A stretch of 64,000 nucleotides of DNA from Zygnema cylindricum (lineage: Eukaryota > Streptophyta > Zygnematophyceae > Zygnematales > Zygnemataceae): assembly GCA_037447655.1 (NCBI GenBank), contig JBBHKE010000187.1:1-64000 (forward strand), written 5' to 3'. Positions 8,321 through 55,792 of the stretch are shown piece after piece (positions within the stretch are counted from its first letter, which is position 1; each line of letters starts with the position of its first letter). The notes below the pieces were generated by a model, which had not been told where the DNA came from, did not search any database, and saw only the letters and a program-made list of their open reading frames with translations. Both the position numbers and the translations under genes were made by a program.

Positions 8321-8329
8321 AGCCGATCA

Positions 8330-8790: not shown

Positions 8791-8959
8791 GATTTGTTTT
8801 TAGATGGTGTTAGAAATAGTTATGATAAAGATCTTTATTTTATTGGGATTTGCAAGAATATTTCGGGAGGGATTTGTGACCAATTGAATGAAAGGCATGT
8901 CAAAAAACTTTAGAAAAGAAAATGGTTTAATGTATTTGCGAACATGGGATAGATAATGC

Positions 8960-11342: not shown

Positions 11343-11730
11343 ACTCCTTTTTATGTATAAAAGGCTAACTTTGAGCAGCCATAACTATTAACTCGGTTGA
11401 CCATTTTCAGTGATTCTTTTTGCTGCATTCTCAAAGGAGTCCAGACTACACAAAGGGTGTAGTCGGCCAGAGTCTTTGCCTGCCAGGGTGGTGGTATTTC
11501 TAAAGGAGAGTCAAAGTGGGGAATGTTATCCAAAACTCATATTCTAATTTTGCATTTTGTGGGGGAACTTAGCACACAGAAAGTCTTCTTTCACATGGGT
11601 GAAGTTGTATTGGGGTTTTAACTGTCAAGGTGTCATTCATTTGGGTTTTAATCAACTCGAAGTCGGCACTATCTAGATAAGCTTCTTGTGAGCTGCGTAC
11701 TCTGAGGACCAATGGAGGTCTCAGTGTTTA
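11343..11730. repeat. Dispersed repeat, copy 1 (partner 28557-28945)
   Basis: Shared blocks include CCATTTTCAGTGATTC, GAGTCGGCACTATCTAGAT(A)AG (here AAGTCGGCACT..) and CCAATGGAGGTCTCA, in the same order and orientation as at 28557-28945. No coding region is seen. It may be a solo LTR or the end of an unidentified element. Confidence 0.8.
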
Positions 11731-15648: not shown

Positions 15649-15757
15649 GCCATAAATTTTCAGTAACCCACGATTTCTTATAGATGCGAGGGAATTTGAC
15701 CGCGTCTATAACCAAACCTTGTCAATTCCTCCACTCTCTCCAATGTCTCCTCCAATC
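15649..15757 (+). repeat. 109-bp direct repeat, copy A
   Basis: It is identical to 18049-18157 except for two substitutions near its left end and lies exactly 2400 bp upstream. In one frame both copies read FLIDAREFDRVYNQTLSIPP, so the segment looks coding-derived. Confidence 0.97.
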
Positions 15758-15929
15758 TCTTCCACACTTTTCGAAGAAGAATTTGACCTCAATTCCCTTG
15801 ACGGGTCAGATTTCAATTCATTTTATTTTTAGTTTCCGCAAATTGTAAAACCATTATTAGCCCCAATCATTCCATTTGTGGAAATGGCTTCCACATCCGA
15901 GAGAGGGGGTCGGTTTCATTTCTGTTTTT

Positions 15930-16926
15930 CATGAATGAAAGACACCATGACCTTATCCTATTTCCGTGTCTTATTCGATACCGAAATGCGCGATCTTGCA
16001 TTTCGGTACCAAGATCGGTTTGACCTACGAGTTGCTTTCTCTCTTCTATGCCGTTACCTCCGCAGTTCGGCCCAGACTCTTTATTCCCGCAAGTATGATT
16101 TCGTACTTGCGATGACAGAGTTTTCTCTAGCTTTTGCTAGGAGTCTTGCTATTATAGGACAACCATAAATTCGTTATCAACCAGCCATCTCGGAAGTCCT
16201 TGATCTCAACGGCGATGTTATTACAGCAGCAATTGCGGAAATACCACAGCAATTTGCTATAGCCGCACGTGCTGAAATCCCTGCACGACCAGCTATGACG
16301 ATCTTATACAGGATCTGCTCTCAGTCATGTTTGAAATGTTGCAAGCGGAATACCGTAGGCAAAACCCTGACCAAGTTCGAGAGTTGATGAACTTTGAACG
16401 AAAATCAGGAGAGACCGCCCCTGCCATACGTGCTCGTATGGAAGCTCTTCATCAAGGATTGCCGGACTTAATGTCGGACGCTGAAGCTGTCCAGAAATTT
16501 GTTGGACAGTTTCCGAGTCAGTTTAAGAATTTTATCTAGAGTCACCTGACTGAAACCTATGGCTTAAAGTCAACTTTCGACTAAGCCGCCCAGCATGCCG
16601 TGGAATACGAAATGCAAAATTGTTGGTGGGAAGCCCATGGCCGTCCTAAAGCGGTCCCGAAAGAACCGATTGTTCCACCATGGAACAATCCTCGTCTTTA
16701 CAACCGGCCTCCTAAAGTTCCGACCATGGGAACCCCACCTGTTGCTCCCGGAAACAAATTATGTTTTCAATGTGGGGAATCAGGGAATGATGCCCGAATG
16801 TGTCCAGACAAAACTGTTACTTGTACACGTTGCAAGCAAACCGGACACTATGTCCAACGTTGTCATATAAAGAACCCGGAATTTTCCTATCAGAACCAAA
16901 TCAAGAGTGGTGGCATTCCCGCTTGA
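15930..16926 (+). pseudogene. Element A gag with two CCHC knuckles, broken
   Basis: The readable pieces are 15935-16168, 16327-16539 and 16600-16926. The middle piece (FEMLQAEYRRQNPDQV, MEALHQGLPDLMSDAEAV, QFPSQFKNFI) resembles a retrotransposon gag core. The last piece holds CFQCGESGNDARMC, a knuckle with Asn for the usual His, and CTRCKQTGHYVQRC, a perfect CX2CX4HX4C knuckle. Stops at 16168 and 16539 and frameshifts separate the pieces. Confidence 0.75.
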
Positions 16927-17257
16927 TCCGCAAAACCGGTTCAACCGGTTAAAGAAACGGTGAAGAACACCACTTCACCCAAAGTATCTCAAAGAGAGAG
17001 AGAGAGCGTTTGGAAATGCAAGAGCGAATGGCGGCCATGATGAAGGAACAGTTCGCAGCCTTGATGACTCAAATTAAGCCCCTATTTACAGGCATGGCTC
17101 GCACCGTTGTATATATGCCCACGTTGGAAGGTCAAATTTTACGAGATTCCACCGTCCAACAACGAGAGGCTATGTTCGACAAAGGTTCGACCGATCACAG
17201 TCGTGACGGTAAAGCTCTTGACACACGCATTCCTTTACTAAGGAACCTTCTCCTCCC

Positions 17258-18055
17258 TTGCTTGAAACAGCTTCAGCCATTGCGGTTCAAGCTCTCAACA
17301 TAGTGGATAGAACTATACATGAGGCACATCGCGTGAAAGAACACTTGTGCATTCTATCCACTATGATTTTTGACTCCCTAAAAATCTCCTCTACCTCCGA
17401 TAGCTCAACTGCAGCTGCCGCTTTACAAACACTTCAGCTGCACAAAAATCTCGCCGCTATTCAACCTATTTCCATAGAAGAGCGAAATTCCCTCGATCCT
17501 CACATAAATTTTTTGGATAACAGGAAGGGTTCGTTGTTGATCAATGGTATAGCCCCTTCCCTTCCCCTCATGGATACGGGTGCAAAGCTGGTGATATTGG
17601 GCTCTAGCTTTGCACTCAAGCTTGGTCTAACTTTGCACAAGCTTCAGCCCACTTCGACACGCTTGTTAACATCAGCGGGTACAACTGAGCCGGTCTTATG
17701 AATCACTAAAGAACCGCTCAATTTCAAGTACCAGAACGGAACAGCTACGGACTTTGCAAAGATCTCGGTTCATGATCTGGTCACTAAATGTAGTGACTGT
17801 GAATGCCTAGTGGGACAAGACGTCATGTTCCGTGTAGGGGATGGAGTTGACATGCATGATCAAATATTTTCCTATAGGCCCACTAACTACCCGGAACGCA
17901 AAATTTGCATTCCGCTAATTTCCGCTAAGAAACCCATGCGCATAACGCATTCGACCACTTTCATACCTGCATTTTCAGGGAATTCTGTGGGAGCCGAAAT
18001 ATTCCATTCTTTGTCTGTAGAAGAAATTATGCCCGATAGTTCTTCCTTGCCATAA
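17258..18055 (+). pseudogene. Element A aspartic protease, broken
   Basis: LPLMDTGAKLVILGSSFALK (about 17563) carries the DTGA retropepsin active site. CLVGQDVMFRVGDG (about 17803) matches the position of the second protease motif (usually LLGxD). A TGA after TTEPVL (17699) splits the frame. The domain would cut the polyprotein. It ends right at the second copy of the 109-bp repeat. Confidence 0.75.
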
Positions 18056-18157
18056 ATTTTCAATAAACCACGATTTCTTATAGATGCGAGGGAATTTGAC
18101 CGCGTCTATAACCAAACCTTGTCAATTCCTCCACTCTCTCCAATGTCTCCTCCAATC
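18049..18157 (+). repeat. 109-bp direct repeat, copy B
   Basis: See 15649-15757. It joins the protease to the methyltransferase domain. Confidence 0.97.
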
Positions 18158-19180
18158 ACAATCCCTACAGACTCTTCTGGGTTTCTTCCAATTAATTGGA
18201 ATCCAGTCCAATTAAGACCTCATCCAAATGGATTGGTGATTTTCGACCTCTTCGTTCGAATCAACACTTCCCTCCTTTCATGCTTGCGGACTGGAATATT
18301 AATTCGATTTTATTAGTCGGTTGAGATTGATCCTTTAGCACGGAAAGCACAAATACATCATTGTATTCTGTTGCATTCCCAATACCCGCTTTTGTTACCA
18401 AAATCCGCATAAGAGTATACGCATACTGCCCTCCCACAAGACATCAGGATTGTGGGCAACCATCACCTATTGGAGATTGGTCCAGTCGATCTAGTTTTTG
18501 GCGGATGGGAGTGCCAAAAAATGTCTCGGGCCGGGAAAGGTCTCGGTTTGGCCGATCCCCGCACCAAATTATTTTTTGAATAGGTTCGCATCTTACATTT
18601 CATTCAAACTTTCGAACATCCCATAGGATATATCTTGGAAAATGTTGCGGCCTATAATGATTTAAGACCTACGGTCTTGGCTGATTATCAACGGATCAAA
18701 CGATTAATTGGTCCGCCCCCTATTATTCACGTCGCTTGCCATGGTTCGCTAGCGCACCGGGTTCGCTCCAAATGGACAAACCTGATTGATATTGGTCGAC
18801 TCCGTGAGGCCAACCTGTTTGTTCGTCCTCCTCCTACAGACATTTAGGCTGCCGTTCTTCCTTTCCATAAGGTGCAGCATTGCATTCAAAAGGACTGTCC
18901 CCCTAATTTCAGTGCCAATGTCGCGGGTCAACCTCTCAAGGTGCTTCTTACCTTAGTTTCTTACCCACATTCACATACATTCTCTAATGACAGTCCTAGC
19001 ATGCTCCGAAACATTCATAACGGTGAGCTCGAAGAGCCTACCTCTACAGAACGAGAACACCTAATGCATTTCATTCCTGGCACTACAGCCGCTTCGGTCT
19101 TACAGAACGTCAAAGATGCACTTTATTAGGTCGTGTCATGGACCCTCTTTCAAGCTCATGTGCTTTTCAGGCATGCCTTT
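18158..19180 (+). pseudogene. Element A C5-cytosine DNA methyltransferase, inactivated
   Basis: In one frame from about 18173 the conserved C5-MTase motifs appear in order. Motif I is IFDLFVRINTSLL, with Arg for the first Gly of FxGxG. Motif II is SVEIDPLAR. Motif IV is DLVFGGWECQKMSRAG, with catalytic Cys but Glu for the usual preceding Pro. FFE.VRIL follows, then motif VI GYILENV and motif VIII HGSLAHRVRSKWTNL. After the target-recognition region come TEREHLMHF and, one frame over, LLGRVMDPL (motif X). Stops lie at 18314, 18410, 18581, 18845 and 19127. At least one (FFE-stop-VRIL) looks like CAG to TAG. The domain would methylate cytosine C5 in DNA, plausibly the element's own cDNA. AHR and the motif arrangement suggest the DNMT3/DRM side, which is inferred. 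Confidence 0.85.
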
Positions 19181-20452
19181 ATATCACCAAGGATTTCCGG
19201 GCCCCTTTTTCCCTGTACGGTCCTCAAAGTACGGATGAGTGAGTGCACCAAGCCGGACGAGATCCTTGTATTTCCTAAATTGAGCGGAACGCACTTTATT
19301 TGGCGCCAAACGGAGGCCGGATGACAAAGTTCTACCGTCTCAACAATTGCAATTCCGTTACGAGAGCCATTTGCTACCAGCCTCCGTGGGGGGTACATTG
19401 TGGATTGCCACGTAACTTTTCGGATTTGCATTAAGATTATGCTGGTAGCCGTCAGTAGAAATTTAGTTCAGTCTCAGCTGACCTTTCGTCCATTTATTAC
19501 GTTAGGTCAAAGTCTGGCAAGTTACTGTCATTTTCAGGATTTTGTCTTATAATTGTGGACCGAATAAATACTTTCGGTCGCAGATCTAGCCGCATTCCGG
19601 AGCACAACTTTTTGCCCCGAGTGTAGTACGGATTAATTTGTCTTGTGTCAGTTCAATTACACTTGTTTGCCGCTCATTGGTTAATGGCGTAGCTTTGACT
19701 TTTGGACTCGTAATTTGACAAACTTTGATGTATAAGGCACTTGGGGTCAAAAGAGACAGGTTGCTTTTCAGTACTGTCTCCTGTGAAAACCCTCAGAAAT
19801 TCCAACAAACCTTCTTTTGGAGAATCTTTGTGTTGTTTCGACTCTATTGCCATCTTGGTTTTGGGGATCTGTCTTGTGTGGAAGTCACAGTCCGGGCGAG
19901 TAGTTGGCATTATCTTCTTTTTTGGGTGATTTTGGACTTTTTGCTGTTGGGAACCGAGAAGAGTCTAGTCGGTTCCGAGCTGCGGACACCGAAGGTTGCG
20001 GGAGGACCATACCTTTTTGACGATACTATCGGGAGAGGGTCCGCCTTTTTCTCATTCTCATCGTTGATTGCTAGGGTATGTTGAGCTCGTTTCGCTACAT
20101 TTCACATTTTATATCTTTTATTCTCTTTTCTGGGGCAAGGTGATATTGTTAAATCTGGAAAGCCAATCATATTTATTTATATATCTACGTGATAGTGCAT
20201 TTGTGTCTTCATCTAGAGTTCTCTTTGCTTTGGAGTTACGGTTCTAGAGTAAAATGAAACCTCTCCCCCAGATCAAGACAGTGGGTTTTCAGGGAACATA
20301 TGCTATAGACTTCCCGTAGACAAAGCACGGTACTGAAAAGCCACCCTGTCTGCTCGTATTAGAGGGGATAGGAGCTTGAACGTCGGAAGCTCTCTTTTTG
20401 GAAGTGAGTTCTAGAGATATTCCATATTATTTCTCTCGTTCCCTTTGTCATC
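19181..20452. other. Remnant DNA between the two DNMT elements, possibly the leader or LTR of element B
   Basis: No conserved domain is seen. Position 20453 starts the long frame of element B, so 19450-20452 may be its 5' LTR and leader, but no matching 3' LTR and no primer binding site were recognised. Open frames at 19725-20084 show no family resemblance. Confidence 0.4.
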
Positions 20453-22600
20453 ATGGGGGGAGGAGAGACTCCGGATAATGGAGCCGGAGAGCAGGGTCGA
20501 CAGGAGAGGCCTGCCCAGGAGGGAAATACTCAAATGGCAGAGGAGTCTGTACCCATTGAGTCCGGATTTGATTCTCATATCATGGAACCAGTTGGTGCTT
20601 CTTCTCCTCCTCTTCCCCCCCACCTGGCTCCCGAACATTACCCTTCCTTAGCGGAGGCCGCCAGGGCCTATGCTGAGGAAAGGAAGGAAGTCAGGGCTCA
20701 GGCCCAAGAAAGGAACCGAGTGTCTCCCACGGCCAAGCCAAAGCGCCAGGCGCAGAGGGAGCCCCATGAGGGTCCCCTTCTAGAGGTCGGGCTTCACACC
20801 CGATATAAAATTCCCCGGGCCGAGATCCAGATTGACCCCGCGGTTTTGACGGATCCACGTTGCCCAGGTCGTAAGGAACTCCTTGCCCTTCACGACCTCC
20901 ATGAGCTCAAGGTGAAGAAGGAGTTGGTACAGAGAATGGCTCGGACAGATCGAGTCAGAGTGGTTAGACCCGTGGGAGAGGTGGTGGAGATTTTGAGCAG
21001 TTATTCGGAGAGCAGCTCTTGACAATCGGTGCAGGACCGGTCCCAGAGAGCCCCCTATTCTCGCCCTCCCCCATCTTCCTCTCAGGACACCGCAGCCAGC
21101 AGACCCACCCGGGAAGGTACCTCTTCTCGGCCTCGTAGAGGAGAAGGGGGTATCAAGAGGGAAACACGAGATCCATTGAGGGGGAAGAGGTTTGACCACC
21201 GTGACAGCAAGGGGAGATTCGCACCGCTTCCCAAGGAGGAGACTTCCCCAACTCCTGTGTCTGCATCAACCCACAAACTAGCTCCTGCACCACCGCGTGA
21301 CAGCCCTCCTGGAGGGCTCTGGCGATCTGAACGAACTGATCCAGAGGTTCCGGGTACGGGACCAAAATATTTGTCCGAGGGGTGGTGGCGGACCAGACCC
21401 AATGATCCCAAAATTCCCGGAATCGAGATAGCCGATCTTACCAAAGTAGTGGAAAAAGCCAAGGAACTAGTGGAGGTTCTGAGATCCAAGGAACAGGCTA
21501 CGGCGGGGGCCGGACCCATCACAATAGATTGGGAGGCCTTAGAGGAAGAGAGGCAAAAGGCATGGGAACAAGAATTGACGCTCATTAGGGAAGCTCGGCG
21601 TAGGACAAGTGGGATTCTTAGCGGGAAGATTCCTCCTACACCAAAGATAGAGCCGAATTCAGAATCTCCCGCAGCGAGGACTTCACCTCTTGCCAGTACC
21701 CAGCCTGAAATGCCTTATTCAAAGCCAAGCCAAGATCCTCTACTTCCGTAGAAAGGGGAGGAAAACACAGAACCTAATGTGGAGGGTTTGGGTGCATATC
21801 TACTTTCTGGAAACGCTTCGGTTCTTCGGGGAGAGACTACCTTTGTCTCGGTGGAGGTGTCTATTGCGGTGGAGGCTTTAGTGGAATTACGACCTGACGA
21901 GAGGATTCACATTCCCTTGAGGGCTCCTACACCACCTCTCACTTCTCCCAGAGAATCCCCGGAGCCCCCATCTTCGGCTCCTCCACCTTATTCCTCTCAC
22001 TCCCCGGAACACACCACATGACCCCGGACTTTCCAGATCCCTCTACTTCGCCATCCGTTTCTCCCGCTGCAGCTGTCTGTGGGTCGCCAAGTCTACTTGT
22101 GTTGCCCTACAAATACGACGTACCCTCCTTTTCCCCGCCTCACCGACGCTCCCCTTCCTCCAACTCCGGAACTTCACCTCATGAGACCTTTAAGAGGCGC
22201 CACATGAGACAGACACCTTTTCTCGCAAGGGCTCGGCCGTCTCCGTCTCCATCTTCTTCGCCGTCTCCGCCACCAACCATCCCCCAAAAGCCTGTGAACA
22301 AGCCACGTCTCCACCTCCCATCGGTGGCAACCGTTCTCCGGGATCCACAATATTCAGATGGACATAGAGGAGTAGTGGGGGATATCCTACCTCCCACCAT
22401 CTTTTTTGGCGCTGGTACTTCCTTAGTGGGAGGGGGATCCACGCCACAGGGAGCCGCACTGTCTAGCAGAGAAGGACCCGGTTCCGATCCCGAGGAACAA
22501 GATACTAGAGTCATCTCACCCGCTCAGTTTGTCAGCCCCACCGGGCCTTCCTCTTCCCATTTCACGAACTCTGCAGAGGAAGAAAAGGAGATGGGATATC
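20453..22600 (+). pseudogene. Element B Pro/Ser/Arg-rich N-terminal region
   Basis: A reading frame starts at ATG 20453 (MGGGETPDNGAGEQGRQ) and continues in the same frame to 22021 with stops only at 21020 (TGA) and 21749 (TAG). A second frame, 22018-22686, continues as a very Pro/Ser-rich sequence (PSPSPSSSPSPPPTIPQK). An acidic, helical-looking stretch at about 21400-21600 (VVEKAKELVEVLRSK) is the only non-disordered part. Nothing here matches a domain I know. It may be an extended, disordered gag N-terminus of roughly 700 residues, unusually long for a Gypsy element. Confidence 0.5.
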
Positions 22601-24578
22601 TGGATCTTTACGGAATACAGCTCGGAGATCGCTTTCTAGGATTTCGAGTTGTTGTGGAAATCATTCACCCAATCAGAAATCAATAAATACAATGGAGGAG
22701 ACATTTCGGATGACTTCGAAACCACCCTCTTCCCCATCATGGTCACCTACCTTTTTGGAGGAACGTTGGCAGATTACAAGGAGCGTCAACCTCTTTTGAT
22801 GACTCCTAGCATTAAAATCTCGGATCCAGCCCTTGATGCCGCTGTTTTGCAAGCGCATGCTGCCTTGGCCGCGGCTACGGCGACCCCTGTGACTCGTACC
22901 TTTACACAGGGCATGAAACCATAGGCGGAAGGAAGTGCCTATGTTAACCAGCTGGAGGCGATCCAGGAAGCCCAGGCAGCAACTCGCATGGTGGCCAACC
23001 CAAACCCTTGTACCACCCTGCTGAATATCTGGAGACTCCTCTACACAGAGAGGAACGAGTCCGCAATCAAGGAATTCACGGAATTCTGATGTTTGAAGAA
23101 CGAGACTCCCCAGACTGTGTTTAACCGACTGTCCAGTCTTTGTCAAAAGACAAAGCTGTCCACGATTGATCTTCCTGCAATGGCCACAAAATTTTTCATC
23201 GCCGTCCATAATTCCTTCGTGTCGACAGGGCAGACTACACTGGACAATTGGATTGCCGGAGAGGTAATCCAGGACATTAATTCCTCAGCCAAGGACATCT
23301 CAATGGTGGCCATGAAGTTGTATGACCATTTCGTCCATAGTGAGGCAAGGGAGAAGGCCGTGACCGGCAAGGCCCGAGCAAATTTGGCAGGATTCGCCGA
23401 GGAGACCTCTTTGAATGAGGAGGAACAGGCTGAACTTCAATCTCTCCGAAAGCTTTAAGCGAAGTAATTGGCTGACAGCGGGTCAGCGCCAGCTAGTGGA
23501 GCAGATGAGCGGGTATTTCTCTATAATTGCCTGAATTGTCGGCAACCAAGTCATGGGTGGAAGCATTACACCAGGAAAACGTAAATCAGAGCTGGCTTTG
23601 AAACTTAAAGAACGGGCAGAAAGAACTTTGAAACAGCAAGAAAGGCTCAAGGGGGGGAGGGGAGAGGACAAGACATCGGTAACCAAAGAAACTTACTGTC
23701 TAACTCCACGGAGCGAAACCTTTAAGATGTCCCAATCTTAGTTGCGGCATATCAAACTTCCAAAGTTTGATGACGCCCAAATCTCCAACGAAATCCGGAG
23801 TAAATATACTACCGAGGGCGCCAAGTGCGAAGCATGTGGATTTCTGGGGCATAAGGAAGGGCAATGTTTCCGGAAAAATGGAATACCCAAGGAAATGATG
23901 CAGTTTGCTTTGTTTACTGGGGAAGGGGAAACCGCCGTTAACCCTCTACCCCTCCAACTCCTTTACCCGTGGGGGCGCCAACTTATGCCAACACCAGAGA
24001 GACCTGAGCGAGTTCTGGCTGCTCCGGCAAAGTTTACGCCGGAGATCATTATACAGCAACAAAGTCAGCAGTTGGCCGCGATGGCTGCAGAGTTAGCTGC
24101 CCTCCGTTTGGGATCTTCTTCCCGGCGTGCACCTCTTACAGTAGCCCAACGACTCCAAAGGCAAAGACACGAGTTGCTACAGAAGCTCGCGGAACTTGAG
24201 CTTCAAAGCACAGAGGGTGCCAATGATGACGACTTATTGGGCTTGGATTTGGAACCTCCAAATGCCCACCATGCCCGAAGCTTCCCGTTTGGAGCTTGGA
24301 ATGTTGGGGTAGGAGACAGTCCTCGCCAACTCCGCAACTCCACCTCAATGCAAAGACAGGACCGCCAGAAAATGGGTCAGAGGGATCACAACCGGAAAGC
24401 TACAGGGCCTTTGTCATTTACTCCCCGAACCGTAATGCTGAACAGCGACATCGGCTTGGGAATCAAGCCCACTCACCAGCCATCTCTTCCTCCCAAACCT
24501 AAATTGCCTCCTGGTTTCGAAAATTGCAAGAACGAGAAACAACAGCGAGAGAAGGAGGTACTGGAAAAAGAGAAATAA
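22600..24578 (+). pseudogene. Element B gag with zinc knuckle, broken
   Basis: Frame pieces 22649-22924 (LWKSFTQSEINKYNGGD, MVTYLFGGTLADYKER) and 23093-23458 (ETPQTVFNRLSSLCQ, LYDHFVHSEAREKAVTG) look like a retrotransposon gag core. CLNCRQPSHGWKH (about 23527) is a degenerate knuckle with His for the last Cys. CEACGFLGHKEGQC (about 23828) is a perfect CX2CX4HX4C knuckle in the frame 23742-24578. That frame goes on with a Gln/Leu-rich helical stretch (QQQSQQLAAMAAELAALR) and a basic tail. Confidence 0.75.
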
Positions 24579-24853
24579 AACAATCATGACTGGTTTGAAA
24601 AGTATATGGCCGAACGCCCGTAGAATGATGCCCCCCAAACACCTCTTGTTCCAGATTCCGGCTCAAAAAGTGAGCAAGAAAGACAAGATCAGGATCAGCA
24701 GGAACCGAACTCATCTCCACCTTCACCAAAAGCAACGCTTCCCTCCTCCAAGCCGGCTGTCATGCTAGTCCGGCACCTCATGCCCTATGCTCTCACACAC
24801 GTGAAGACTCTAGCCTCGTCTCACAACTTGCCTGAAAAATCCTCATTCAGGCA

Positions 24854-25501
24854 TTGGGAGAGGAGATCCACTCTGGAAGGGGGGGGGTAGACAAGGCCAC
24901 TCCGCCAACCGCATTATTTTTGTCCGTGGATAGTAAAACCCATATAGTGGATAGGGACTACAAAGCCTTATCCGTGGCTCTCATACCGAATAGAAACACG
25001 AACTTCAAGCTCAACGGATACGGGGGATACCAGGACGCTGTGGTCGACACCGGAGCTCTCCTCAACATCATTACCACCTCCGTTTTGCAGAAGATGCCCG
25101 AGGAACTCCGGCCCGAAATCTACCCAAGCAACATCTGCTTAAGCACCGTAAGCAACGGCAGTCAACCATTCCATGGGATAATCAAGGCCATGGATATCGA
25201 GTTTTCGGATGACGGAGGCCAACGGGTGAAAATTGAGCTCCCATTCTTGGTGGTGGAAGGGACTCAATTCGAAATTCTGTTGGGAATGGCCACATGGACA
25301 CGGCTTAATATGAGTTTGAGCGTGTGGAAAGAACAGTGTACCATCCGGGACCCCAAAAATCCGGAAGGAACCAAAGGGGTGGTTCCTCTGGATTTATGGA
25401 ACCGGGGAAAGACAAATGTCCCAGTGTTTGGATGCTACCCGGTGTACATAACTTCATCTCCGACAAAAGTGTTTGGCAGTTCCACCGACATTGCCAAATA
25501 A
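24854..25501 (+). pseudogene. Element B aspartic protease
   Basis: DAVVDTGALLNIITTSVLQK (about 25029) is a retropepsin active site with the DTGA core. VEGTQFEILLGMATWTRLN (about 25255) is the second protease signature. The 215-residue frame is otherwise intact and ends 176 bp before the methyltransferase frame, which lies in another phase. The protease would release the methyltransferase and RT from the polyprotein. Confidence 0.88.
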
Positions 25502-25677
25502 ATCTAGCAATTCCCAATTTCCAAGCAGTGGGAAGAGGAATATAAGAATAGATTATTACAAGTAGCAAAACTCCGGTGGGGAGTGGATTAGGCATTTTCA
25601 GCCTTGACGTTAAAGGAAGCTACCTCACAATCTAATGCTTCCAAACCCAAGACCAGTAACAAGGAATCAATCGACAA

Positions 25678-26690
25678 GTGGTGTCATTGGCAGTTCCCGA
25701 TTCTGGGATGCATATTTTATCTCTATTTTTAGGAATTAGTTCTGATTTGGAAGCGGTCTTGAAAACAAGATATCTGGTGGAGTCATACACAGCCGTGCAA
25801 GTATCTCCCGAGGCTAGGGATGTCAGCGAACATCGTCTCCACCAACTTCATCACCAATATCCTCAACAGCTTCCAGTATCCACCTTCTCCAAAGCTCACC
25901 GTAGTCTTCCCCACAATGTAGAGAACATCATGGCGACCCACCTAGCCAGTTTGGGAAGAGTGGATTTGGTGTTGGCAGGCTGGCCTTGTGAAGGATACTC
26001 CCTAGCAGGACAAGGAAAAGGGCACCAAGACCGCAGAAGTGGAACCTTTTTTCGGTTGATTCAGTTAATCTCGAGGCTTCAACAGCTCCAGGAAACGCCG
26101 GTGGGGTACGTTCTAGAAAATGTCCACCCAAGAGATGATAAACGAAAATAGGTTGCGGACAGCTGGAATCACGTAACCCGGATCTTAGTTTTCGACGCCA
26201 TACAGCAGGGATCCCGGGCACACCGAGTCGGGCATATGAGACCAACATGATCCCGATTCCAGTCCTCCACCAACTGTTGGAGAAAGAAATCCCCGACCCG
26301 AAAAATTGCGTTCAGCAAATACTTGGGGAAGGTAGAATAGCCACACCTGTGACTCGACCCGATCGCCCACCTTTCTTCCGGTGCAACAGAACGGGATTCC
26401 CAGAGAAAGCCCTGCCAACATTGGTCTCTTTCCCTCACAGTAACGCATATCGCAATGGAGCGGCACGAATGATTTTGACAGCAAAGCAGGACTCTGGACA
26501 ACACCGACGATTGCCGAACGGGAAGAAGCAATGGGATTTTAGAAAGGAACAACGGCATCACCAGGTATGTCAGACCTTAAGCGGTGCAGCCTTATGGGGC
26601 AAAGTATGGATTTGAATTCGGTCACATGGGTACTGAAGCATTCACTCGCCTTTTCCAATCTAACGTCCCCGAAATCAAGAGCTATTTACC
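25678..26690 (+). pseudogene. Element B C5-cytosine DNA methyltransferase
   Basis: The first frame (25678-26151) has motif I MHILSLFLGISSDLEAVL (Ser in place of the second Gly), a motif II-like AVQVSPEAR, motif IV VDLVLAGWPCEGYSLAGQGK with the catalytic Pro-Cys pair, and motif VI GYVLENV. After a TAG at 26149 the same frame reads QQGSRAHRVGHMRPT (motif VIII). The C-terminal part is in two shifted frames: LVSFPHSNAYRNGA (about 26424), then TIAEREEAMGF, a TAG, KGTTASPGMSDLKR and LMGQSMDLN (about 26510-26620, motifs IX-X). LVSFPHSN matches LVSYPHSH in element A, so the two domains are homologous. Its place between PR and RT suggests it is released as part of pol. Confidence 0.88.
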
Positions 26691-27317
26691 TTCAAGATCC
26701 TCAATTATTAGCTGTGCAGGCAACTTTGCAGCTTGAGGGGGGGAGAGAAAGGAGAAAAACCAAACTTCACATTTTACCGCCGCAGGTTTTCCTAGTGGGG
26801 GGGGACAGCGGCTTCTATGGTGAGAGTCTAGCGGAAGTTGTCAGCAGCAATGTCCTAGCCTTAGAGGTAGGGGCAGATCCACCGGTAGGGTTGGAATTGG
26901 ACATTAACCTCTGGGGTAGACCACTGGAAGCTTGGGCTGCAGCCGGGGAAAATGGATTAGACCCTGGGGGAGCAGTTGGACCCCCAGCAGAAGGCGTGAC
27001 TCTCGGAGCTGTTGGCCCAAAACAAACAGGTGTTCTCATGGTCAGAAATAGATGTCGGTATCTACAAAGGAACACCTTTCCGAATCAATTTGATCGACGA
27101 GACGTCTATTGTTTGGCAGAAGCAGTATCCTCTAAGTTTCAAGGAAAAGGAATTCATCACGGCTAAAGTCTTGACCCTGGTGGAAGCCGGATTGGTTCAG
27201 GAAAGTACTGGACTTCATGGGTTTGCTTCCAAGACAGTCCTCCCTCCCAAAAAAGACTCGTCCGGGAAAACTGTAGATTTCCGGATGTGTGGAGACTATC
27301 GCATACTGAACACTGTT
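26691..27317 (+). pseudogene. Element B reverse transcriptase, N-terminal half
   Basis: A Gly-rich spacer (26700-26990) leads into Gypsy RT: LAQNKQVFSWSEIDVG, LIDETSIVWQKQYPL, VEAGLVQESTGLHG, SKTVLPPKKDSSGKTVDFRM and CGDYRILNTVE. The frame then runs into the SINE-like insertion and loses the blocks between DYRxLN and the active site. Confidence 0.87.
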
Positions 27318-27324
27318 GAAATAA

Positions 27325-27600
27325 GTAGTTTTGTATTTTCTAGTTTAAAATAAATTAGCGGAAACATATATAAGAAATGATGGCAGCCTGCCTCCATCTC
27401 TTCTCTCTCTCCCCCATACTTGTTGTAGTCACTGAAAAAGAGAGAGAGCGATGGAGCCATGGCTGCCTCAGCTCCATAGGAAGGACTAAAGAGTGACTTA
27501 AGTCACTCTCAACAAAAGGTTGAGTCCGGCAGGACTCGAACCCCCGACCGGTAGAGCGCGGCGTACTCCGAGGAATCGATTGTGCCCGGCGCTATATTGA
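27325..27600 (-). mobile_element. SINE-like element 1, tRNA-related head
   Basis: On the minus strand the right end carries GGTTCGAGTCC (27542-27532), a perfect Pol III B box as in a tRNA T-arm. It is followed by a body with GAGCCATGGCTGCC (rev. comp. side) and CCCCCATACTTGTTG. It shares that body with 27745-28015. No complete tRNA cloverleaf is seen. Confidence 0.6.
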
Positions 27601-27742
27601 TGATGTTATTATATTCTCAAAGACTTTTGATGAACACCTAGAGCATAACCAGATCGTTCTCCGGGCACTTCGAGCAGAGGGCTTGAAATGTCACCCGGGC
27701 AAAGGCATTTTTTGGGTGCAGAAAATTATTTACCTCGTGTTG
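27593..27742 (+). pseudogene. Element B reverse transcriptase, active-site fragment
   Basis: YIDDVIIFSKTFDEHLEHNQ (about 27594) holds the RT catalytic YIDD box. LRALRAEGLKCHPGKGIFWV and QKIIYL follow before the second SINE-like sequence cuts the frame at about 27745. About 70 residues between this and the N-terminal half are missing. Confidence 0.88.
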
Positions 27743-27744
27743 AT

Positions 27745-28015
27745 ATTTGAGTATTTTCTAGGTCTGTATTAGGATAGAAAAAGAGCTGAGGCGGTCTGCC
27801 TCTAACTCCCTTATCCAATCCCCCACACTTGTTGCAGTCACTGAAGGCTGGATAGGGAGCTAGAGCCATGGCTGCCTAGGCTCTCTAGAGAAGACAAGGG
27901 GTGAATTAGGTAGACTTACCAAAAGTTAGTTGACCCACGAATTGATCCTGGTACCTGTCGTCCGTCAATCCGCATTAGCCGTTAGCTCTAGCCGTTAAGT
28001 CTAGGACAGATATTA
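27745..28015 (-). mobile_element. SINE-like element 2
   Basis: Shared blocks with 27325-27600 are TATTTTCTAG at the left end, CTGCCTC, CCCCCACACTTGTTG.AGTCACTGAA and GAGCCATGGCTGCCT. The B-box position here is weak (GGATCAATTCG). Both copies lie inside the reverse transcriptase of element B. Confidence 0.55.
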
Positions 28016-28556
28016 CGATATGTAGGGTTTGATAAATATATAAATCGTTATATGTAGATTAATCCGTTTAAGGGCTAATAGATACTTAGTACATAGATAC
28101 AGTTTGATTTAGTACGAAGTACGGTATGTGGACAGAACGGATTCCGCGCATTTGTTTCGATAGCGAAACAAAAATCGCGCATTTGTTTCGATAGCGAAAT
28201 AAATACCGCGCGTCGAATTTCAGCGGCTACGATTATAGTCGGTTTTGATCGGACGGCCACGATAGGCGCCGCGATCACGGAAAAGGCATTTTTGGCGTTT
28301 TACGGTCTTTGCCACGTCAGATGACACGTGGCGTGATAACATTGGACTACGCGAATTCCGGAGATTACAGGAACTAATCTTGATTTGACACGTGTCGACA
28401 TTTTGGCCATGTCGTACAATGGCCGTACATAAAGTACACCGGCACCTGTACTTTTCTGTACGACACAATAATTTGATTGGTGCCGTACTTCAGTAGATAG
28501 AGTTTTAGAGAGGGAATAGGACTTAGAAAATTTTGGGTAGGCAGCTGCCTCTCCCA
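28016..28556. other. Non-coding stretch
   Basis: It contains a tandem pair of a ~30-bp unit (CGCGCATTTGTTTCGATAGC.., about 28146-28203). Nothing else is recognised. Confidence 0.5.
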
Positions 28557-28945
28557 GAGAGCACTCTGTATAAATGGCAAACTTTGGCCAGCCATAACTA
28601 TCAATTTACTTGACCATTTTCAGTGATTCTTTTTGCTGCGCACTCAAGGGATTCCATGCTACACAGGGGTGTAGTTGGTCAGAGTTTTTGTCTGCCAGGG
28701 TGGCTGCATTTATAAGGGAAAGTCAAAGTGGGTGAATGTGTCCAAATCTCATATTCTAACTTTGCATTCTGTGGTGGAACTGACCACACAGAAAGTGTTA
28801 TTTCACAGGGGTGAATCTATATTGGGATTGTGATTGTCAAGGGGTCAGTCATTTGGGTTTATATTAACTTAGAGTCGGCACTATCTAGATTAGCTTCTTT
28901 TGGATCTGCATACTCTGAGGGCCAATGGAGGTCTCACAGTTTCAC
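28557..28945. repeat. Dispersed repeat, copy 2 (partner 11343-11730)
   Basis: It has the same blocks in the same order as 11343-11730, including TAACTAT(C/T)AA..GACCATTTTCAG, AGGGTGTAGT and GGAGGTCTCA. Confidence 0.8.
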
Positions 28946-28956
28946 CTCGGACATGA

Positions 28957-29118
28957 GGTGAACACAACTTATGATAGGACTATCGTCAGATTTGGACGAT
29001 CGGACGGTCGCTGATAAAAGTAGCGACTTAAGAAGATCACATGAAAAGCCCATAACACAACTTACGATAAAGGCGCCGACAAAAGGCCTACAATTGAAAC
29101 GCCTACTTTTGAACTATG
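28957..29118. repeat. Dispersed repeat, copy 1 (partner about 42944-43082)
   Basis: GATCACATGAAAAGCCCATA, ACACAACTTACGATAAAGGC and ACGCCTACTTTTGAACTATG recur in order at 42944-43082 with very few differences. Positions 29119-29541, up to the first inverted-repeat element, hold nothing recognisable except short ACATTTCCGTAAAATTTCGT repeats at about 29150-29210. Confidence 0.9.
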
Positions 29119-29543
29119 ATTGCAACCCTTCTCTTTTCGTGAAAGGCTGTACATTTTCGGGAAATTTCGTACATTTCCGTAAAATTTCGTACATTTCCGT
29201 AAAATTTATGTTAACTGGAGATAAAGTACTAAGAAGTGCAATGTATCTTTTCGTCAAATTCTGTATATTCCCGGAAAAAGCCGTACATTTTTTGTAAGTT
29301 TCCATTCAGTTTACCAAACAAAAAGTACTCAAAGTTTTTTTGCGGTTTTTTCAAAAGTCACGAATTATACTTAGAAATCGGAAAAATGAATAAATCGCAC
29401 GATTTTAACAACAACGGGGTGGATCTTCGAGTACACCTACGTACTCATCTCGTATAGCGTTTCCAATTGTGTTCACACGTTTGAATTTTTGAACTTGGTA
29501 TACCACAGTTTGAAGATGACCGTACGGACAGCAATTGACGGTA

Positions 29544-30104
29544 CACCGACAATCGCTATTAGCGTAGTGTACGCTAATCGCGTCCCGTTTTTTTTTTCTT
29601 ATTATTCTCCATTAGCGTAGTTCATTCTATTTTTTTCTTTACTCTATTTAGGGTAAATTTTTTAGTACCGTACAAATCGGAAGTACGTCATCATTTAATT
29701 AGTGTGGTATATGGACAGTGTCAGACCGTACAAATTTGTACCTTTGTAAGTGCAAAAGTGTAATTAATGAGTTTTAGTAACCGTGGACGCATGAGAATGT
29801 GTGCTCTAAAAATGGGATATAATCGGGCTGTCAAATATCACGTTCGCACATATTCGTCTTGCAACCACGTTTCGAATGTGTGAACGTACGATTTGTGTAC
29901 AATTTGTCAAGTTTTGTACGAATACCTATATTAGTGTAAGCGTGTTTGCGACCGACATTTATTTTTTCAAAGACCCAAATTACAATTATGAAAAAATTAG
30001 AATGTATGTTTTTTTTCGAAATTTTCAAATTCTTAATTAGCGTACACCACTGTAATTTTTCATACACGTTAAAGAAACTTCTACGCTAATAGCGATTGGC
30101 GGTG
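29544..30104. mobile_element. TA-flanked inverted-repeat element 1 (MITE-like)
   Basis: The left end CACCGACAATCGCTATTAGC and the right end (reverse complement CACCGCCAATCGCTATTAGC) match over 24 bp with one mismatch, and TA flanks both sides (29542-29543, 30105-30106). At 561 bp with no coding capacity, it looks like a non-autonomous DNA transposon with a TA target, as in Tc1/mariner-type elements. Confidence 0.8.
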
Positions 30105-30111
30105 TACTGTA

Positions 30112-32262
30112 CACCGTCAATCGCTATTACAGTAAGAGCATTGTTCCATTAGGCGGTCTCGGTAAACGTCAAAAAATCGTTTACTTAAGCTATCGTTCCA
30201 TTGTGTCGGGTCAGTAATCGACGTTTTATTTGCGTGGCAAATTTTGATTGGTTCACGTAATAGATGATTACGATTCTAAAAATCTTAAAAGAATCTCTGA
30301 CAGCGAATTGTGACCACATATTTGTACCAGCGAAGGTTAAAAGTGACTCGTACGACATATTGAATAAAATTTGTACAGGCGGACAAAACTTCAGATTTGT
30401 AAAAGCATACGAAAAGTCAAAATGGTTAGTGGATGGCAACAGACGCGTGAAACAATATCCTCCGTCAAAGATTTTCTTGCGTCTTCCGGTGGCCTCGCAT
30501 CCTTTCTGGCGGAAGGCACATGTCATATGCGAATGTCATATGCGACGTGTACTCACCTGGTCGTGCGGTCGTCGTGGATATTTGTTCACTTTTCCACGAG
30601 GCACGATGGAATTTCTTCAGGCGCTGAGAATTGACCTACTCGAGGTCACTTATTGCGAACTGAAAGTGTCAGACGATGTCATATCCGATTATGCATCCGA
30701 CAGTCCACATTAACACCCATAACATGGAGAATCAAATCCCTCATTCAGTAGCATTGTTTTTCTAACATCTTTTATTTTTAGGTACGGCAATTTACGAATC
30801 AGTACGGCTTTCAGTAAACAACGTCATTTTTTCCCTAATGGGACCTTACCCTAAAGGATTAAACAGCGTAAAGACAAAATTAGTGTTATTAACACTAATC
30901 GGGATTTTTTTTTTAAATATATATATACTAATTAATCCCTAACTGTAATTCGGGTTGTCCTGAAGAATAAATACCCGCCCTTTCAATGTCTACAGTAATA
31001 TGTGTATTTGTACAAAATCTGACAATTCGTATGCCGTCGCGCTGTTCACACGTTCGACGGACGAACATATGAGAACATGATTTTTGTCGACGAGTTTGCA
31101 TCTCTTTCTTCCAGTGCACATTCACATGTGTGCGCAATGATGTGAAGTGTCTTTTTATGCCTTTGTAATTCAAAAAGTACCATTTTGTACAAAAATTAGT
31201 GTTGTGTATCGGTAAGGATTTGCCGATAATCGATATGGGCCTTTTTTCGGGTATCTGATAATCAATATATTGGTAAGATATATCGACATCGGTCTTATCG
31301 TCGATAAGTAGCCGATAATATCGGGTACTTATCGGCGATAATGTCGATAACGATAACTGTACGGGCCGTACAGATAATTGTACGGCATGTACACTCAACT
31401 GTACGTCTTATTCCCCGGACGTGTACAAACACAGAAAGTACAGTAGCCGCCATGAGATCTGTACGGTTTTGATACGGATCCAGTAAAAACGATGTACCTT
31501 TCACATCCGACGCCATGGCTTTGTCCTTTTATTCTTGAGATCCACTGGGACATGCCACGTGTCAATCTGTCGACTTTTTTGGCATAAGCTGCCAAAAGAG
31601 CCATTCCGGGATGCCGGCGCTCACGCTGGCCCGTCCGCTCGTGTTTTCTCATTCCAAGTCGTCCGTTCTATTCCGGCGGCGCGCAGAATGTTATTTTGCG
31701 TCCGTTGTACTTTCGTGTCCGCCGTCCTTTTCCAGTTCCATGTTCACCAGTTTTTTAGTAAAATTACGTACGTCGCCGTAAAAGTTTTGTTCAGTTAACC
31801 GGCCAACATTTATATGCTGCGCTATCCGTAATAAATTGCAGTTAAGCGCTAACGTAACAGATTTTTATACGTGGCATGCCACGCTATATAAAATCAATAA
31901 AATAATACAGTATGTTATAAAGTACTATTGTATGCATACTATATATTTTTTAAGTTATCGCCGATATGGAATTTGTTGGTCCCAGACCGATATATCGGAA
32001 TCTTTGACCGTTCGATAACCGATAACTATCGGTATCGGTGTTATCGCGATAAGTTTTTTACCGATACACAACACTAACAAAAATACCCTGTCCGTATGCC
32101 ACAGTATTTCCATCGCAGTGTACTTCCCTTATTAACGCTAATTGAAAAAAAAATATAATTAGAATAATGGAAAAAATCGAATTATGGATTGTATTTCGGG
32201 TTTTTTTTTTTTTAAAAAGGGCATCGAATTGGCGTTATATACTCTAATAGCGATTGACGGTG
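30112..32262. mobile_element. TA-flanked inverted-repeat element 2, with nested hAT-like element
   Basis: The ends are a perfect 18-bp inverted repeat CACCGTCAATCGCTATTA with TA on both sides. A hAT-like element (31197-32076) sits inside. Without it the element is about 1.26 kb. A 149-codon open frame lies at 30264-30713 (+) but resembles no family I know, so it is not called as a gene. Confidence 0.8.
31197..32076. mobile_element. hAT-like non-autonomous element, intact with target duplication
   Basis: It starts TAGTGTTGTGTATCGGTAA and ends with its exact reverse complement. The flanks are the same 8-bp direct repeat ACAAAAAT (31189-31196 and 32077-32084). An 8-bp duplication with a TAGNG-type end is the hAT signature. 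The 880-bp interior holds palindromic CGATA-rich ends and no transposase. A related inverted copy is at 45239-45943. Confidence 0.93.
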
Positions 32263-32269
32263 TACTGTA

Positions 32270-32468
32270 CACCTTGAATCTTTATTAGCGTATAGAAATT
32301 ATTAGTGTAAAGAAAAAAATAGCGTCATTCATTCTAATTTAGTGCCAGGAGACGTGGCAGATTATGGTCCACGTCCTTAAATAGTGTAATTTATTATATT
32401 TAAGGTATCAATGTCAAAATTTTGGGGTGCCGATATAGCGTACATAAGGCTAATAACGATTCACGGTG
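32270..32468. mobile_element. TA-flanked inverted-repeat element 3 (199 bp)
   Basis: The left end is CACCTTGAATCTTTATTAGC and the right end (reverse complement) CACCGTGAATCGTTATTAGC, with TA on each side. It is separated from element 2 by TACTGTA and from element 4 by TACAGTA. Confidence 0.75.
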
Positions 32469-32475
32469 TACAGTA

Positions 32476-33851
32476 CACCGCGAATCGTAATTAGTAGTGT
32501 TGGGTATCGAGGACCCATTGCCGATATTCGATATATATCGAATTTCAGGTACCCGATAATCGATATATCGCTTCGATATATCGAATTCAAATCATCGCGA
32601 TATATCGCCGATATGTCGTATCTTCGATATATCGAAGCTACAAAAAAAAAAAATCCCACAGGTTTTCAAAGTCTCGTGACTTCGGACAAAGTGACTGTAA
32701 AATCTTTGCCGGAAAGAAATACGGTTTTTTCATGAAAGTCAGCAGAGTGAAGGAGATCTCTGAGGTACATTGACGAGGTACACTTGTGAAGTACACGTAC
32801 ATTATACGCAAGTACGATTTTCCAGACGAAAAAGGTCGGTTTACAGATATTCGATGATTTTTGAGATTTGGTAGTCAGCTTACGTGGAACCACTCATATC
32901 AGAACACGTATGTATAACCTTTTGACAAAAGATACGCGATGTACCCGAGGCCTCTGTAATACATAAATTTTGCTGTCCGTACTATTACAGAGACCTCCTC
33001 GCGTAACCATACCCCAAATAATTAATTATTAGAATTTCAGAATTAGTACTTTTTTGTCGGTTACATTTTGCGGCGTCTACCTTTAAGTCACGGAACGAAA
33101 ATCACGGCGTACGTGGCGTATTAGACAATTTGACTTTTTCGCTAAAATAACATATTATATAAAAAAATAAAAAAATAAAAATTTAAAAAATACTATATAT
33201 CGCGATATATATCGCGATAATTTATGTCGGTCTCGGTACGATATATCGAAGATCCTGCTCGATTGATATTCAATATATCGAATATTGGTATTATCGCGAT
33301 ATGAATTTACCCGATACCCAACACTAGTAATTAGAGTAATGAAAAAATTAGAGTAAAAAAACCAGAAAAAACAATTAGAGTAATGAACTCTAATTTATGT
33401 GATTGAACTTTTTCACAGAGGAAGTTTACTCAAATTTATTTAAGTACTCTATATTGGGTTATGTCGGCAATAATTATCCGCGCTGAAATTATGAACACTA
33501 AATTACGTAGACATACAAAATCTGTCAGTCCGTATAGTTTTGACGTCATTATGACGTTAGTACTATTTGTTGCGCTGAATGTCAGTTAATGTTCACACTG
33601 ACGACGATGCTGTCGACGGACGAGAGGTATGCGAACGGCTTTTTTTCGATATGATTGATTTTTCGTTTAGTGCGATTTCACGTGGATCTCATTAAATCAT
33701 TATTTGTACCTTTTTATTCAAAAAATTACAATTTTGCACGGTCGAACGTCGTCCGTACTCCACACTATTCAAAACTAACCTATATTAGAATTTTTTACGC
33801 TAATTAAACGGACGGAATTAGCGTACACAACGCTAATAACGATTGGCGGTG
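32476..33851. mobile_element. TA-flanked inverted-repeat element 4, with nested hAT-like element
   Basis: The left end is CACCGCGAATCGTAATTAG and the right end (reverse complement) CACCGCCAATCGTTATTAGC. The hAT-like element 32495-33326 is inserted in its left arm, so the original element was about 540 bp. Confidence 0.75.
32495..33326. mobile_element. hAT-like non-autonomous element, intact with target duplication
   Basis: It starts TAGTGTTGGGTATCG and ends with the exact reverse complement. It is flanked by the 8-bp direct repeat GTAATTAG (32487-32494 and 33327-33334). It is 832 bp long with CGATATATCG palindromes at both ends and no transposase. Relics of the same family are at 3697-3960 and 47320-48294. 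Confidence 0.95.
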
Positions 33852-34748
33852 TACTGAACCGTGCATTTTTAGGTGTGAAGGTCGCGTGTGAAGGGGTCGC
33901 AGTTTTCGCGAACTCGTAAGAAACGTAGTCTGTACTGTAGCATCGATCTTTCCTGAAATTTTGTTTACTTTTTGGAAGATTTATGTTAAAACTTCACTTT
34001 GACGTTATGCACTTTCCTTCCAGAAGTTCGTGAAGGCTACTCTTTGACGATCTCTTTCCTGTCGTCCTTTGGTCGTTTTTTTTCTTCTTTTTGTCGGCTT
34101 TTTGTCGTCGTTGGCTCGACATTCCTGGCTCTCGTCGATGAGCCACGTGTCACGTGATGCGGCCTTCTTGTTCGGTGTGGTATTAACTGCAGCTTTCAGT
34201 TTGGTCAAAAGAATTCTAACAGAGAATTGAACAACAAATACAGTCAAACGAAGATAGGAGGGAGTTAATTTGTTTTTCTTTCAGGATTCATGCTTAATGT
34301 TGTTACTACAACTTAGTTTTTCTTATGGATTTTAATAGACTGGATAAAGAGAAACATGAATGGAATGGAGTGGAGTCTTCATGTTTGTTTGTCTTCCTCA
34401 ATTTCAAAAGTTGATTAAGATTGGAATTCGTGTTTCTCATGATGTTTGATCAGTTTAGCTGAATTGAAGTTGTTTTTATCATGCAAAAATATGTTCTGTT
34501 TTTTCTCTACATCCAAAGCAAGCTAATGAAAGATTTTATTGTTCCTATGTGAGGTAATTCTAATGATGTTGTTGTATTTAACTTGTCTAATCATATTCGG
34601 TTTCTTCCTCTGTTTATATCTTTCCTTTCTGTTTTCCAGGTGGCTTGTTGTACACATTGATAGAGGTGTTTTTTTTCTGAACTGAAGGTTTGTAGTTCCT
34701 TTGAGTGAAAATAAAAGTAATAGTTTCTTTTGAGTGGGAGTAAACAAA
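33852..34748. other. Intergenic and 5' flank of TRM112
   Basis: It carries a segment (about 33857-33900, ACCGTGCATTTTTAGG..GTGTGAAGGGGT) also found in the palmitoyltransferase intron at about 51990-52020. The rest shows no gene. The 5' untranslated region and promoter of TRM112 must lie here, but no core element is convincing. Confidence 0.5.
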
Positions 34749-55656: not shown

Positions 55657-55692
<36 letters not shown>

Positions 55693-55720
55693 CCTCTCCC
55701 TTTCTCTATGTGTCTACCCA

Positions 55721-55792
<72 letters not shown>

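What the first reader, a model, noticed from the sequence alone, without database searches (positions are those of the whole stretch)
25678..26690. Retrotransposon-borne cytosine DNA methyltransferase between protease and RT
Seen: C5-MTase motifs I, IV (GWPCEGYSLAG with catalytic Cys), VI (YVLENV), VIII (SRAHR) and IX-X (EREEAMGF, LMGQSMDLN) lie between a DTGA retropepsin and Gypsy RT in the same orientation. Known: Gypsy elements with DNMTs have been described in charophytes (Klebsormidium), and a separate DNMT-bearing retrotransposon class in dinoflagellates. Inference: the element methylated its own cDNA or insertion, either to hide from other defences or to limit itself.
Basis: partly seen in the sequence, partly recalled or inferred. 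Interest (0 to 1): 0.88.

Follow-up and report, generated by a model that had tools for sequence, protein, structure and literature searches.

The report
Retrotransposon with methyltransferase and chromatin reader
The window holds one decayed copy of a jumping gene with many relatives in the same genome; the family carries a DNA methyltransferase domain between its protease and its reverse transcriptase and, in fuller copies, a histone-reader-type finger at its end; it likely marks its own newly made DNA, and the host is probably a Zygnema-like alga, a close relative of land plants.

Summary
Window 25684-26644 encodes a cytosine-C5 methyltransferase (PF00145, E=4.3e-9) between an aspartic protease and a Ty3/Gypsy RT, but this copy is broken and lacks its 3' half. 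Fuller copies read gag - protease - in-frame UAG - DNMT - RT - RNase H - DDE integrase - PHD-type finger, with DIRS-like split direct repeats. The DNMT is DNMT3-type and unpermuted, under purifying selection (median dN/dS 0.21; RT 0.18) and co-inherited with RT. Of 32 copies with the junction, 30 keep UAG and 32 keep CAATTC after it, which points to readthrough placing the DNMT in Pol. It is the same kind of element as KnitGypsy-Dnmt3 of Klebsormidium nitens, in a probable zygnematophyte host; the sections I read on that element mention neither a UAG nor a PHD finger. Function is inferred: likely methylation of its own cDNA, with the finger as a probable chromatin tether. New variant of a known kind.

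The parts
19150..20328 (+). left terminal repeat A1 of the element
   Evidence: 77.7% identical to the 1183-bp repeat A of copy L041/L038
20408..24575 (+). gag region, decayed, in several open pieces
   Evidence: open pieces; DNA homology to gag of other copies over most of 21185-24481
23826..23867 (+). CCHC zinc knuckle (CX2CX4HX4C)
   Evidence: read by eye; Pfam zf-CCHC_4 only at E=0.2; CCHC patterns in the gag of other copies
24836..25498 (+). retropepsin-type protease with DTGA
   Evidence: PF13975 4.3e-4, PF13650 6.3e-4, both below cut-off; same position in other copies
25505..25513 (+). conserved UAG followed by CAATTC between protease and Pol
   Evidence: TAG in 30 of 32 and CAATTC in 32 of 32 sequences with the junction, window included
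25684..26644 (+). DNMT3-type cytosine methyltransferase, broken by stops and frame changes
   Evidence: PF00145 4.3e-9; relatives best match DNMT3A/B/C
27000..27350 (+). N-terminal part of Gypsy reverse transcriptase
   Evidence: DNA homology to RT of other copies to about 27313; no credible Pfam or PDB hit alone
27351..27565 (-). insert with a tRNA-like B box on the minus strand, SINE-like
   Evidence: sequence read by eye; repeated at 27781-27925; no tRNA called by ARAGORN
27566..27737 (+). RT part with YIDD motif; homology to the family ends here
   Evidence: RVT_1 1.8e-6; 82-88% DNA identity to copies L021, L038, L024

Best explanation
It is a decayed, 3'-truncated copy of a high-copy Ty3/Gypsy retrotransposon family that carries a DNMT3-type DNA methyltransferase domain inside Pol, and in intact copies the enzyme is likely made by occasional reading through a conserved UAG stop and would methylate the element's own newly made DNA. 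Shown here: the order gag - PR - UAG - DNMT - RT - RNase H - DDE integrase - PHD-type finger; split direct repeats A1...B1-A2-B2; conserved catalytic motifs; purifying selection; co-inheritance of DNMT with RT. Inferred: (1) ribosomes mostly stop at UAG, giving Gag-PR, and sometimes read through, giving Gag-PR-Pol, so the DNMT is packaged with RT and integrase in limited amounts; (2) after cDNA synthesis the DNMT marks the double-stranded cDNA (CG, by analogy with other DNMT3 enzymes) before or during integration, so new copies arrive already marked, which disguises them and tempers damage to the host; (3) the PHD-type finger behind the integrase reads a histone tail and steers insertion, as chromodomains do in other Gypsy elements.
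For: DNMT: PF00145 in the window and in two uninterrupted Pol frames of 1520 and 1525 aa together with RT, RNase H, integrase and a PHD-type match; PDB matches Ty3 Gag-Pol 8e-100, PFV integrase 1e-18, DNMT3A 7e-11. Family: 150 of 150 scored candidates of 1274 and 124 matches from 123 scored of 1865. UAG 30 of 32, CAATTC 32 of 32. dN/dS medians DNMT 0.206, RT 0.175, PHD 0.238, spacer 0.386. DNMT-RT Mantel r=0.637, 0 of 2000 permutations; catalytic Cys in 33 of 35. Split direct repeats in 5 of 6 copies examined. PHD profile hits PHD fingers, best 1.8e-7. Precedent: KnitGypsy-Dnmt3 in Pol with Ka/Ks below 0.2; SymbioDIRS-Dnmt3 DNMTs methylate CG in yeast.
Against: No methylation, expression or readthrough was measured. 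The DNMT of KnitGypsy-Dnmt3 gave no methylation in yeast, though its authors call this inconclusive. The DNMT diverges about twice as fast as RT (0.245 against 0.127). The sixth base after UAG does not fit the TMV-type consensus as I recall it. PHD matches of single copies are below the Pfam cut-off. CpG depletion in the window element is slight (o/e 0.65 against 0.88-0.92 in the flanks), GpC falls too, and host silencing would also cause it. The structure model was poor (pLDDT 53.7).
Confidence: 0.6

Rival explanations
1. The DNMT is kept because it silences the element itself: methylated new copies are transcribed less, which limits copy number and harm to the host (self-limitation) rather than hiding the cDNA.
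For: Raised by de Mendoza et al. as an alternative. Same sequence evidence as the main reading.
Against: The family is numerous and includes a copy with 98.0% identical repeats, so limitation, if any, is loose.
Confidence: 0.2
2. The domain no longer acts on DNA in the element; it is kept as a structural or RNA-acting part of Pol (for example binding or methylating the genomic RNA or tRNA primer).
For: RNA methylation is raised for LINE-borne DNMTs by de Mendoza et al.; no activity was measured here.
Against: Catalytic Cys in 33 of 35 sequences, and the best relatives are DNMT3 enzymes, with the tRNA methyltransferase DNMT2 far behind (0.14 and above).
Confidence: 0.12
3. The UAG is not a readthrough site; Pol with its DNMT is made in another way (internal start, splicing or a second message), and the stop is kept for another reason.
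For: Readthrough was not measured, and the CAATTC context departs from the recalled type-I consensus at its last base.
Against: The stop is in frame in 30 of 32 copies with its downstream context unchanged in 32 of 32 while neighbouring codons vary; the two exceptions are one-base changes.
Confidence: 0.2
4. Chance insertion of a host DNMT gene fragment into one Gypsy copy, with no function in the element.
For: The window copy by itself is broken and would fit.
Against: Same order in many copies, purifying selection, co-inheritance with RT, and at least 41 of the best 60 RT hits with a DNMT just upstream.
Confidence: 0.01

Closest known systems
KnitGypsy-Dnmt3 of Klebsormidium nitens (de Mendoza et al. 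2018, PMC5890265; sections 9, 10, 11 and 15 read, figures not held)
   Same: Gypsy domain set, unpermuted Dnmt3-type DNMT inside Pol, repeats arranged as in DIRS elements, purifying selection on the DNMT.
   Different: Other host, probably a zygnematophyte. The sections read mention neither a UAG before the DNMT nor a PHD-type finger after the integrase, and call K. nitens copies fewer than those of Symbiodinium. No K. nitens sequence was at hand, so common descent is untested.
SymbioDIRS-Dnmt3 and SymbioLINE-Dnmt of dinoflagellates (same paper)
   Same: Retrotransposon-borne cytosine methyltransferases, the first also Dnmt3-type.
   Different: DIRS and LINE elements in dinoflagellates; de Mendoza et al. 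treat them as independent acquisitions.
Chromodomain and Tudor Gypsy elements (for example of Ectocarpus, PMC12477816, passages only)
   Same: A chromatin-reader domain at the C-terminal end of Pol.
DNMT3 and plant DRM methyltransferases
   Same: DNMT3-type motif VIII and best PDB matches.
   Different: Not permuted as in DRM; part of a retrotransposon polyprotein.

Membership tests
KnitGypsy-Dnmt3-type elements | RT, RNase H and DDE integrase of Ty3/Gypsy type | tested here: met
   on two full Pol frames
KnitGypsy-Dnmt3-type elements | unpermuted DNMT3-type DNMT inside the Pol frame | tested here: met
KnitGypsy-Dnmt3-type elements | repeats arranged as in DIRS elements | tested here: met
   B1-A2-B2 in 5 of 6 copies with A2 and letters beyond it; in the sixth A2 is cut short
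KnitGypsy-Dnmt3-type elements | purifying selection on the DNMT (published Ka/Ks below 0.2) | tested here: met
   median dN/dS 0.206 by a Nei-Gojobori script, 15 stop-free copies, 33 pairs; marginally above the published bound, another method
KnitGypsy-Dnmt3-type elements | common descent of the DNMT and RT with the K. nitens copies | not testable with these tools
   no K. nitens sequences were available
DNMT3 | closest relatives are DNMT3 rather than DNMT1, CMT, DRM, DNMT2 or bacterial enzymes | tested here: met
   best 29 of 55 PDB sequences are DNMT3A/B/C (5.7e-13 to 1.8e-8), then HhaI 1.4e-4, 4onj 2.3e-4, DRM2 8.8e-4; no DNMT1, CMT or DNMT5 listed; no tree made
DRM | permuted motif order | tested here: not met
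   order I-IV-VI-VIII-IX-X in 15 aligned copies
PHD finger | Cys4-His-Cys3 zinc ligands and PHD profile match | tested here: met
   CX3C-C..C-H..C-WFC..C conserved in the 8 aligned copies; profile hits PHD fingers from 1.8e-7; single copies 2.4e-4 and 0.0044, below the Pfam cut-off; first spacing is CX3C, not CX2C
type-I (TMV-like) stop readthrough site | UAG followed by CARYYA (consensus recalled) | tested here: inconclusive
   UAG in 30 of 32, CAATTC in 32 of 32; five of the six downstream bases fit

The most novel reading that the evidence does not exclude
A streptophyte Gypsy lineage has assembled a writer-and-reader kit in one polyprotein: a stop-codon-gated DNMT3 that methylates its own cDNA and an integrase-linked PHD finger that steers the pre-marked cDNA into matching chromatin, so that the element installs its own epigenetic state at each insertion. 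The family has expanded in a close algal relative of land plants, and its fingers account for the at least 9-fold larger PHD gene family reported for Zygnema SAG 698-1a.
Probability: 0.3. Interest if true: 0.88.

Novelty: new variant of a known kind. Interest (0 to 1): 0.72.

Why it matters
Cytosine methylation normally silences transposons, so an element that keeps its own DNA methyltransferase under selection is a paradox. In the plant lineage it was reported before in Klebsormidium. Here the same kind of element is a large family with at least one recent-looking copy, most likely in a second streptophyte class. The conserved UAG suggests how the enzyme is dosed and packaged, and the PHD-type finger pairs a possible reader with the writer. 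This makes the open question of what a retrotransposon gains from DNA methylation testable on young copies and on extrachromosomal cDNA. It also warns that PHD and DNMT3 gene counts in such genomes may be inflated by retroelements.

Tried and rejected
Chance insertion: rejected by the own-genome copies. Close bacterial or viral relatives: scans with this DNMT piece of viral contigs, phages and genome contigs gave no confirmed relative; these reach close relatives only. The protein database gave 5 candidates, none significant, for residues 100-158; timed out. PR and RT scans of viral contigs were also empty. I suspected C895 (RT 84% identical, open frame 1090 aa) of lacking the DNMT; a 701-base look showed one, 55% identical. 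The direct repeat 11354-11729 / 28567-28942 was first taken for LTRs and dropped. The DNMT structure model was poor; its Foldseek matches (50 shown, all DNMT3-containing entries) count as weak support only. PMC8310308 and PMC9841425 held none of my readthrough-context terms. Host: PF03514 was answered; PF02519 and PF10498 were asked once each and not answered; RF01960 did not complete.

Full report
Check of the observation. 25678-26148 matches Pfam DNA_methylase at E=4.3e-9 and NCBIfam dcm at 7.9e-12, below that model's cut-off. The remaining motifs follow in other frames up to about 26644. The domain lies between a DTGA protease (24836-25498, weak Pfam match) and a Gypsy RT (27000-27350 by homology; 27578-27763, RVT_1 1.8e-6). 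The copy is broken: stops at 25499-25501, 26149-26151 and 26540-26542, several frame changes, an insert in RT at about 27351-27565, and no homology to the family after 27737.

Relatives in the same genome. The own-genome search places the window on contig C141 of an unnamed 352.8-Mb, 2689-contig assembly. The DNMT fragment matched in 150 of 150 scored candidates out of 1274 first-look candidates, the window itself being one of them. The DNMT domain of copy L021 gave 124 matches from 123 scored out of 1865. The candidates that were not scored are unconfirmed. I fetched 20 copies of up to 9.9 kb (L021-L040), chosen for long open frames and good scores, so they are not a random sample.

Architecture. 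Two copies have stop-free Pol frames of 1520 and 1525 aa. Pfam gives DNA_methylase (about 70-250), RVT_1 (601-768), RNase H, H2C2 and rve integrase, and a C-terminal PHD match (0.0044 and 2.4e-4, below cut-off). PDB sequences give Ty3 Gag-Pol 8e-100, PFV integrase 1e-18, DNMT3A 7e-11 and HhaI 3e-4. A profile of 8 copies of the C-terminal finger matches PHD fingers, best MLL3 at 1.8e-7. A hit to the finger region was found in 17 of 35 loci; only the 20 long loci reach that far.

The UAG. Of 35 sequences (34 copies and the window), 34 gave a match to the start of Pol. Two of these (L005, L035) did not cover the junction, and L006 gave none. Of the 32 with the junction, 30 have TAG and two have one-base variants (TAT in L017, TTG in L034); 32 of 32 have CAATTC next. 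An in-frame stop kept together with its downstream context, while neighbouring residues vary, is what selection for readthrough would leave. The TMV-type consensus CARYYA is recalled, and the last base here does not fit it. Under this model Gag-PR is the main product and DNMT-RT-RH-INT-PHD the extension. Upstream, gag and protease frames overlap by 77 nt in L023, L038 and L039, but lie in one 1448-aa frame in L032, so a frameshift there is not general.

Repeats. Copy L038 has a 1183-bp repeat A on both sides (24 mismatches, 98.0%). At its 3' end the order is B1-A2-B2, B2 being about the last 288 bases of B. The same was seen in 5 of 6 copies with A2 for which letters beyond it were fetched; in the sixth A2 is cut short. 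L037 shows one more A-B junction in a neighbouring fragment on the other strand. Several copies end in B without A2. This is the split direct repeat of DIRS-like elements, yet the integrase is of the DDE type. De Mendoza et al. say the same of KnitGypsy-Dnmt3. The window keeps A1 at 19150-20328 (77.7%).

Selection and inheritance. dN/dS medians over stop-free stretches: DNMT 0.206 (15 copies, 33 pairs), RT 0.175, RNase H 0.222, integrase 0.049 (4, 3), PHD 0.238, spacer between DNMT and RT 0.386, N-terminal segment 0.377; pairs with dS outside 0.02-1 were left out. Five minus-strand loci (L011, L015, L016, L017, L020) were lost by an orientation slip, mended. DNMT and RT distances correlate (Mantel r=0.637, 0 of 2000 permutations, 32 of 35 sequences). 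The catalytic Cys is present in 33 of 35, Ser in 2. Against: the DNMT diverges about twice as fast as RT (0.245 against 0.127).

Relatives without the DNMT. Of the best 60 of 150 RT hits, 32 have a scored DNMT hit 1.0-2.6 kb upstream in the list, and nine more in the list (read off by eye): at least 41 of 60. The other 19 are undecided, as both lists are capped. C895, picked as suspect because its frame is short, has a DNMT. A DNMT-free sister family is not excluded.

Type of DNMT. The profile of 15 copies gives DNMT3A/B/C as the best 29 of 55 PDB sequences, then HhaI (1.4e-4), 4onj (named only DNA methyltransferase, 2.3e-4) and DRM2 (8.8e-4), the last two over motifs I-IV only; no DNMT1, CMT or DNMT5 is listed. 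The order is unpermuted. No tree against other DNMT families could be made.

Host. The window also holds an ankyrin-DHHC acyltransferase gene; its likeness to plant TIP1 is recalled. GRAS genes are present: 27 matches, all over the cut-off, on 12 contigs, 0 of 14 control genomes. The Zygnema preprint PMC9915684 (passages and Table 1 seen) places the origin of GRAS in the ancestor of Zygnematophyceae and land plants, gives Zygnema cf. cylindricum SAG 698-1a as 359.8 Mb in 3,587 scaffolds, and reports its PHD family as at least 9-fold larger than in the other Zygnema strains. A high-copy element with a PHD-type finger would explain that. I infer that the host is this alga or a near relative (about 0.6); size and contig number do not match exactly, and land plants and other zygnematophytes were not excluded by a test.

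Literature. The Klebsormidium case is established (PMC5890265); its DNMT showed no activity in yeast, which the authors call inconclusive, while SymbioDIRS DNMTs methylated CG. Morozov et al. state that transposons encoding DNA methylases are absent from land plants such as tracheophytes (PMC6338049, passages); an algal host would not contradict this. PMC12344493 mentions retrotransposon DNMT3s as previously reported, and its main text does not hold the words Zygnema or Mesotaenium (passages). In searches I saw no title or abstract start reporting a DNMT-plus-PHD Gypsy element, or a DNMT-bearing Gypsy element in Zygnematophyceae. Of the 19 papers listed I opened 5, and no supplements could be read.

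Mechanism. Architecture, selection and co-inheritance are shown. Readthrough, packaging, self-methylation of cDNA and finger-guided insertion are inferred. CpG depletion in the window element is weak evidence (o/e 0.65 against 0.88-0.92, with GpC 0.78 against 0.93-0.98).

Noticed in passing
G000:C895:53038-53667 and G000:C1515:19116-19745: Divergent subfamily: RT 84% identical to L021 in 1090-aa open frames; in C895 the DNMT stretch is 55% identical and open over the 701 bases read. C1515 was not read.
   Followed up: partly
G000:C961:71851-72480 (minus): An RT hit, 96% identical to L021, in a stop-free frame of 5743 aa, far longer than Pol.
   Followed up: no
window 28001-34000: Repeats with a CpG observed/expected ratio of about 1.2-2.4 in most 500-base steps, at 30-43% G+C, against 0.87 for the whole window; related copies near 10.4-11.3 kb and 45-48 kb.
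   Followed up: no
window 15649-18157: Short element with 109-bp direct repeats 98% identical and 2.4 kb apart, holding a CCHC knuckle and an aspartic protease but no RT seen between the repeats.
   Followed up: no
window 49403-58153: Host gene with ankyrin repeats and a DHHC palmitoyltransferase domain (PF01529 1.5e-16), in several exons.
   Followed up: partly
window 355-2449: Remains of a Ty1/Copia element: integrase core, SH3-like domain and RVT_2 (2e-67).
   Followed up: no
window 6137-8910: Remains of another retroelement with two zinc-knuckle patterns and an RVT_1 match of 4.5e-6 at 7971-8315.
   Followed up: no
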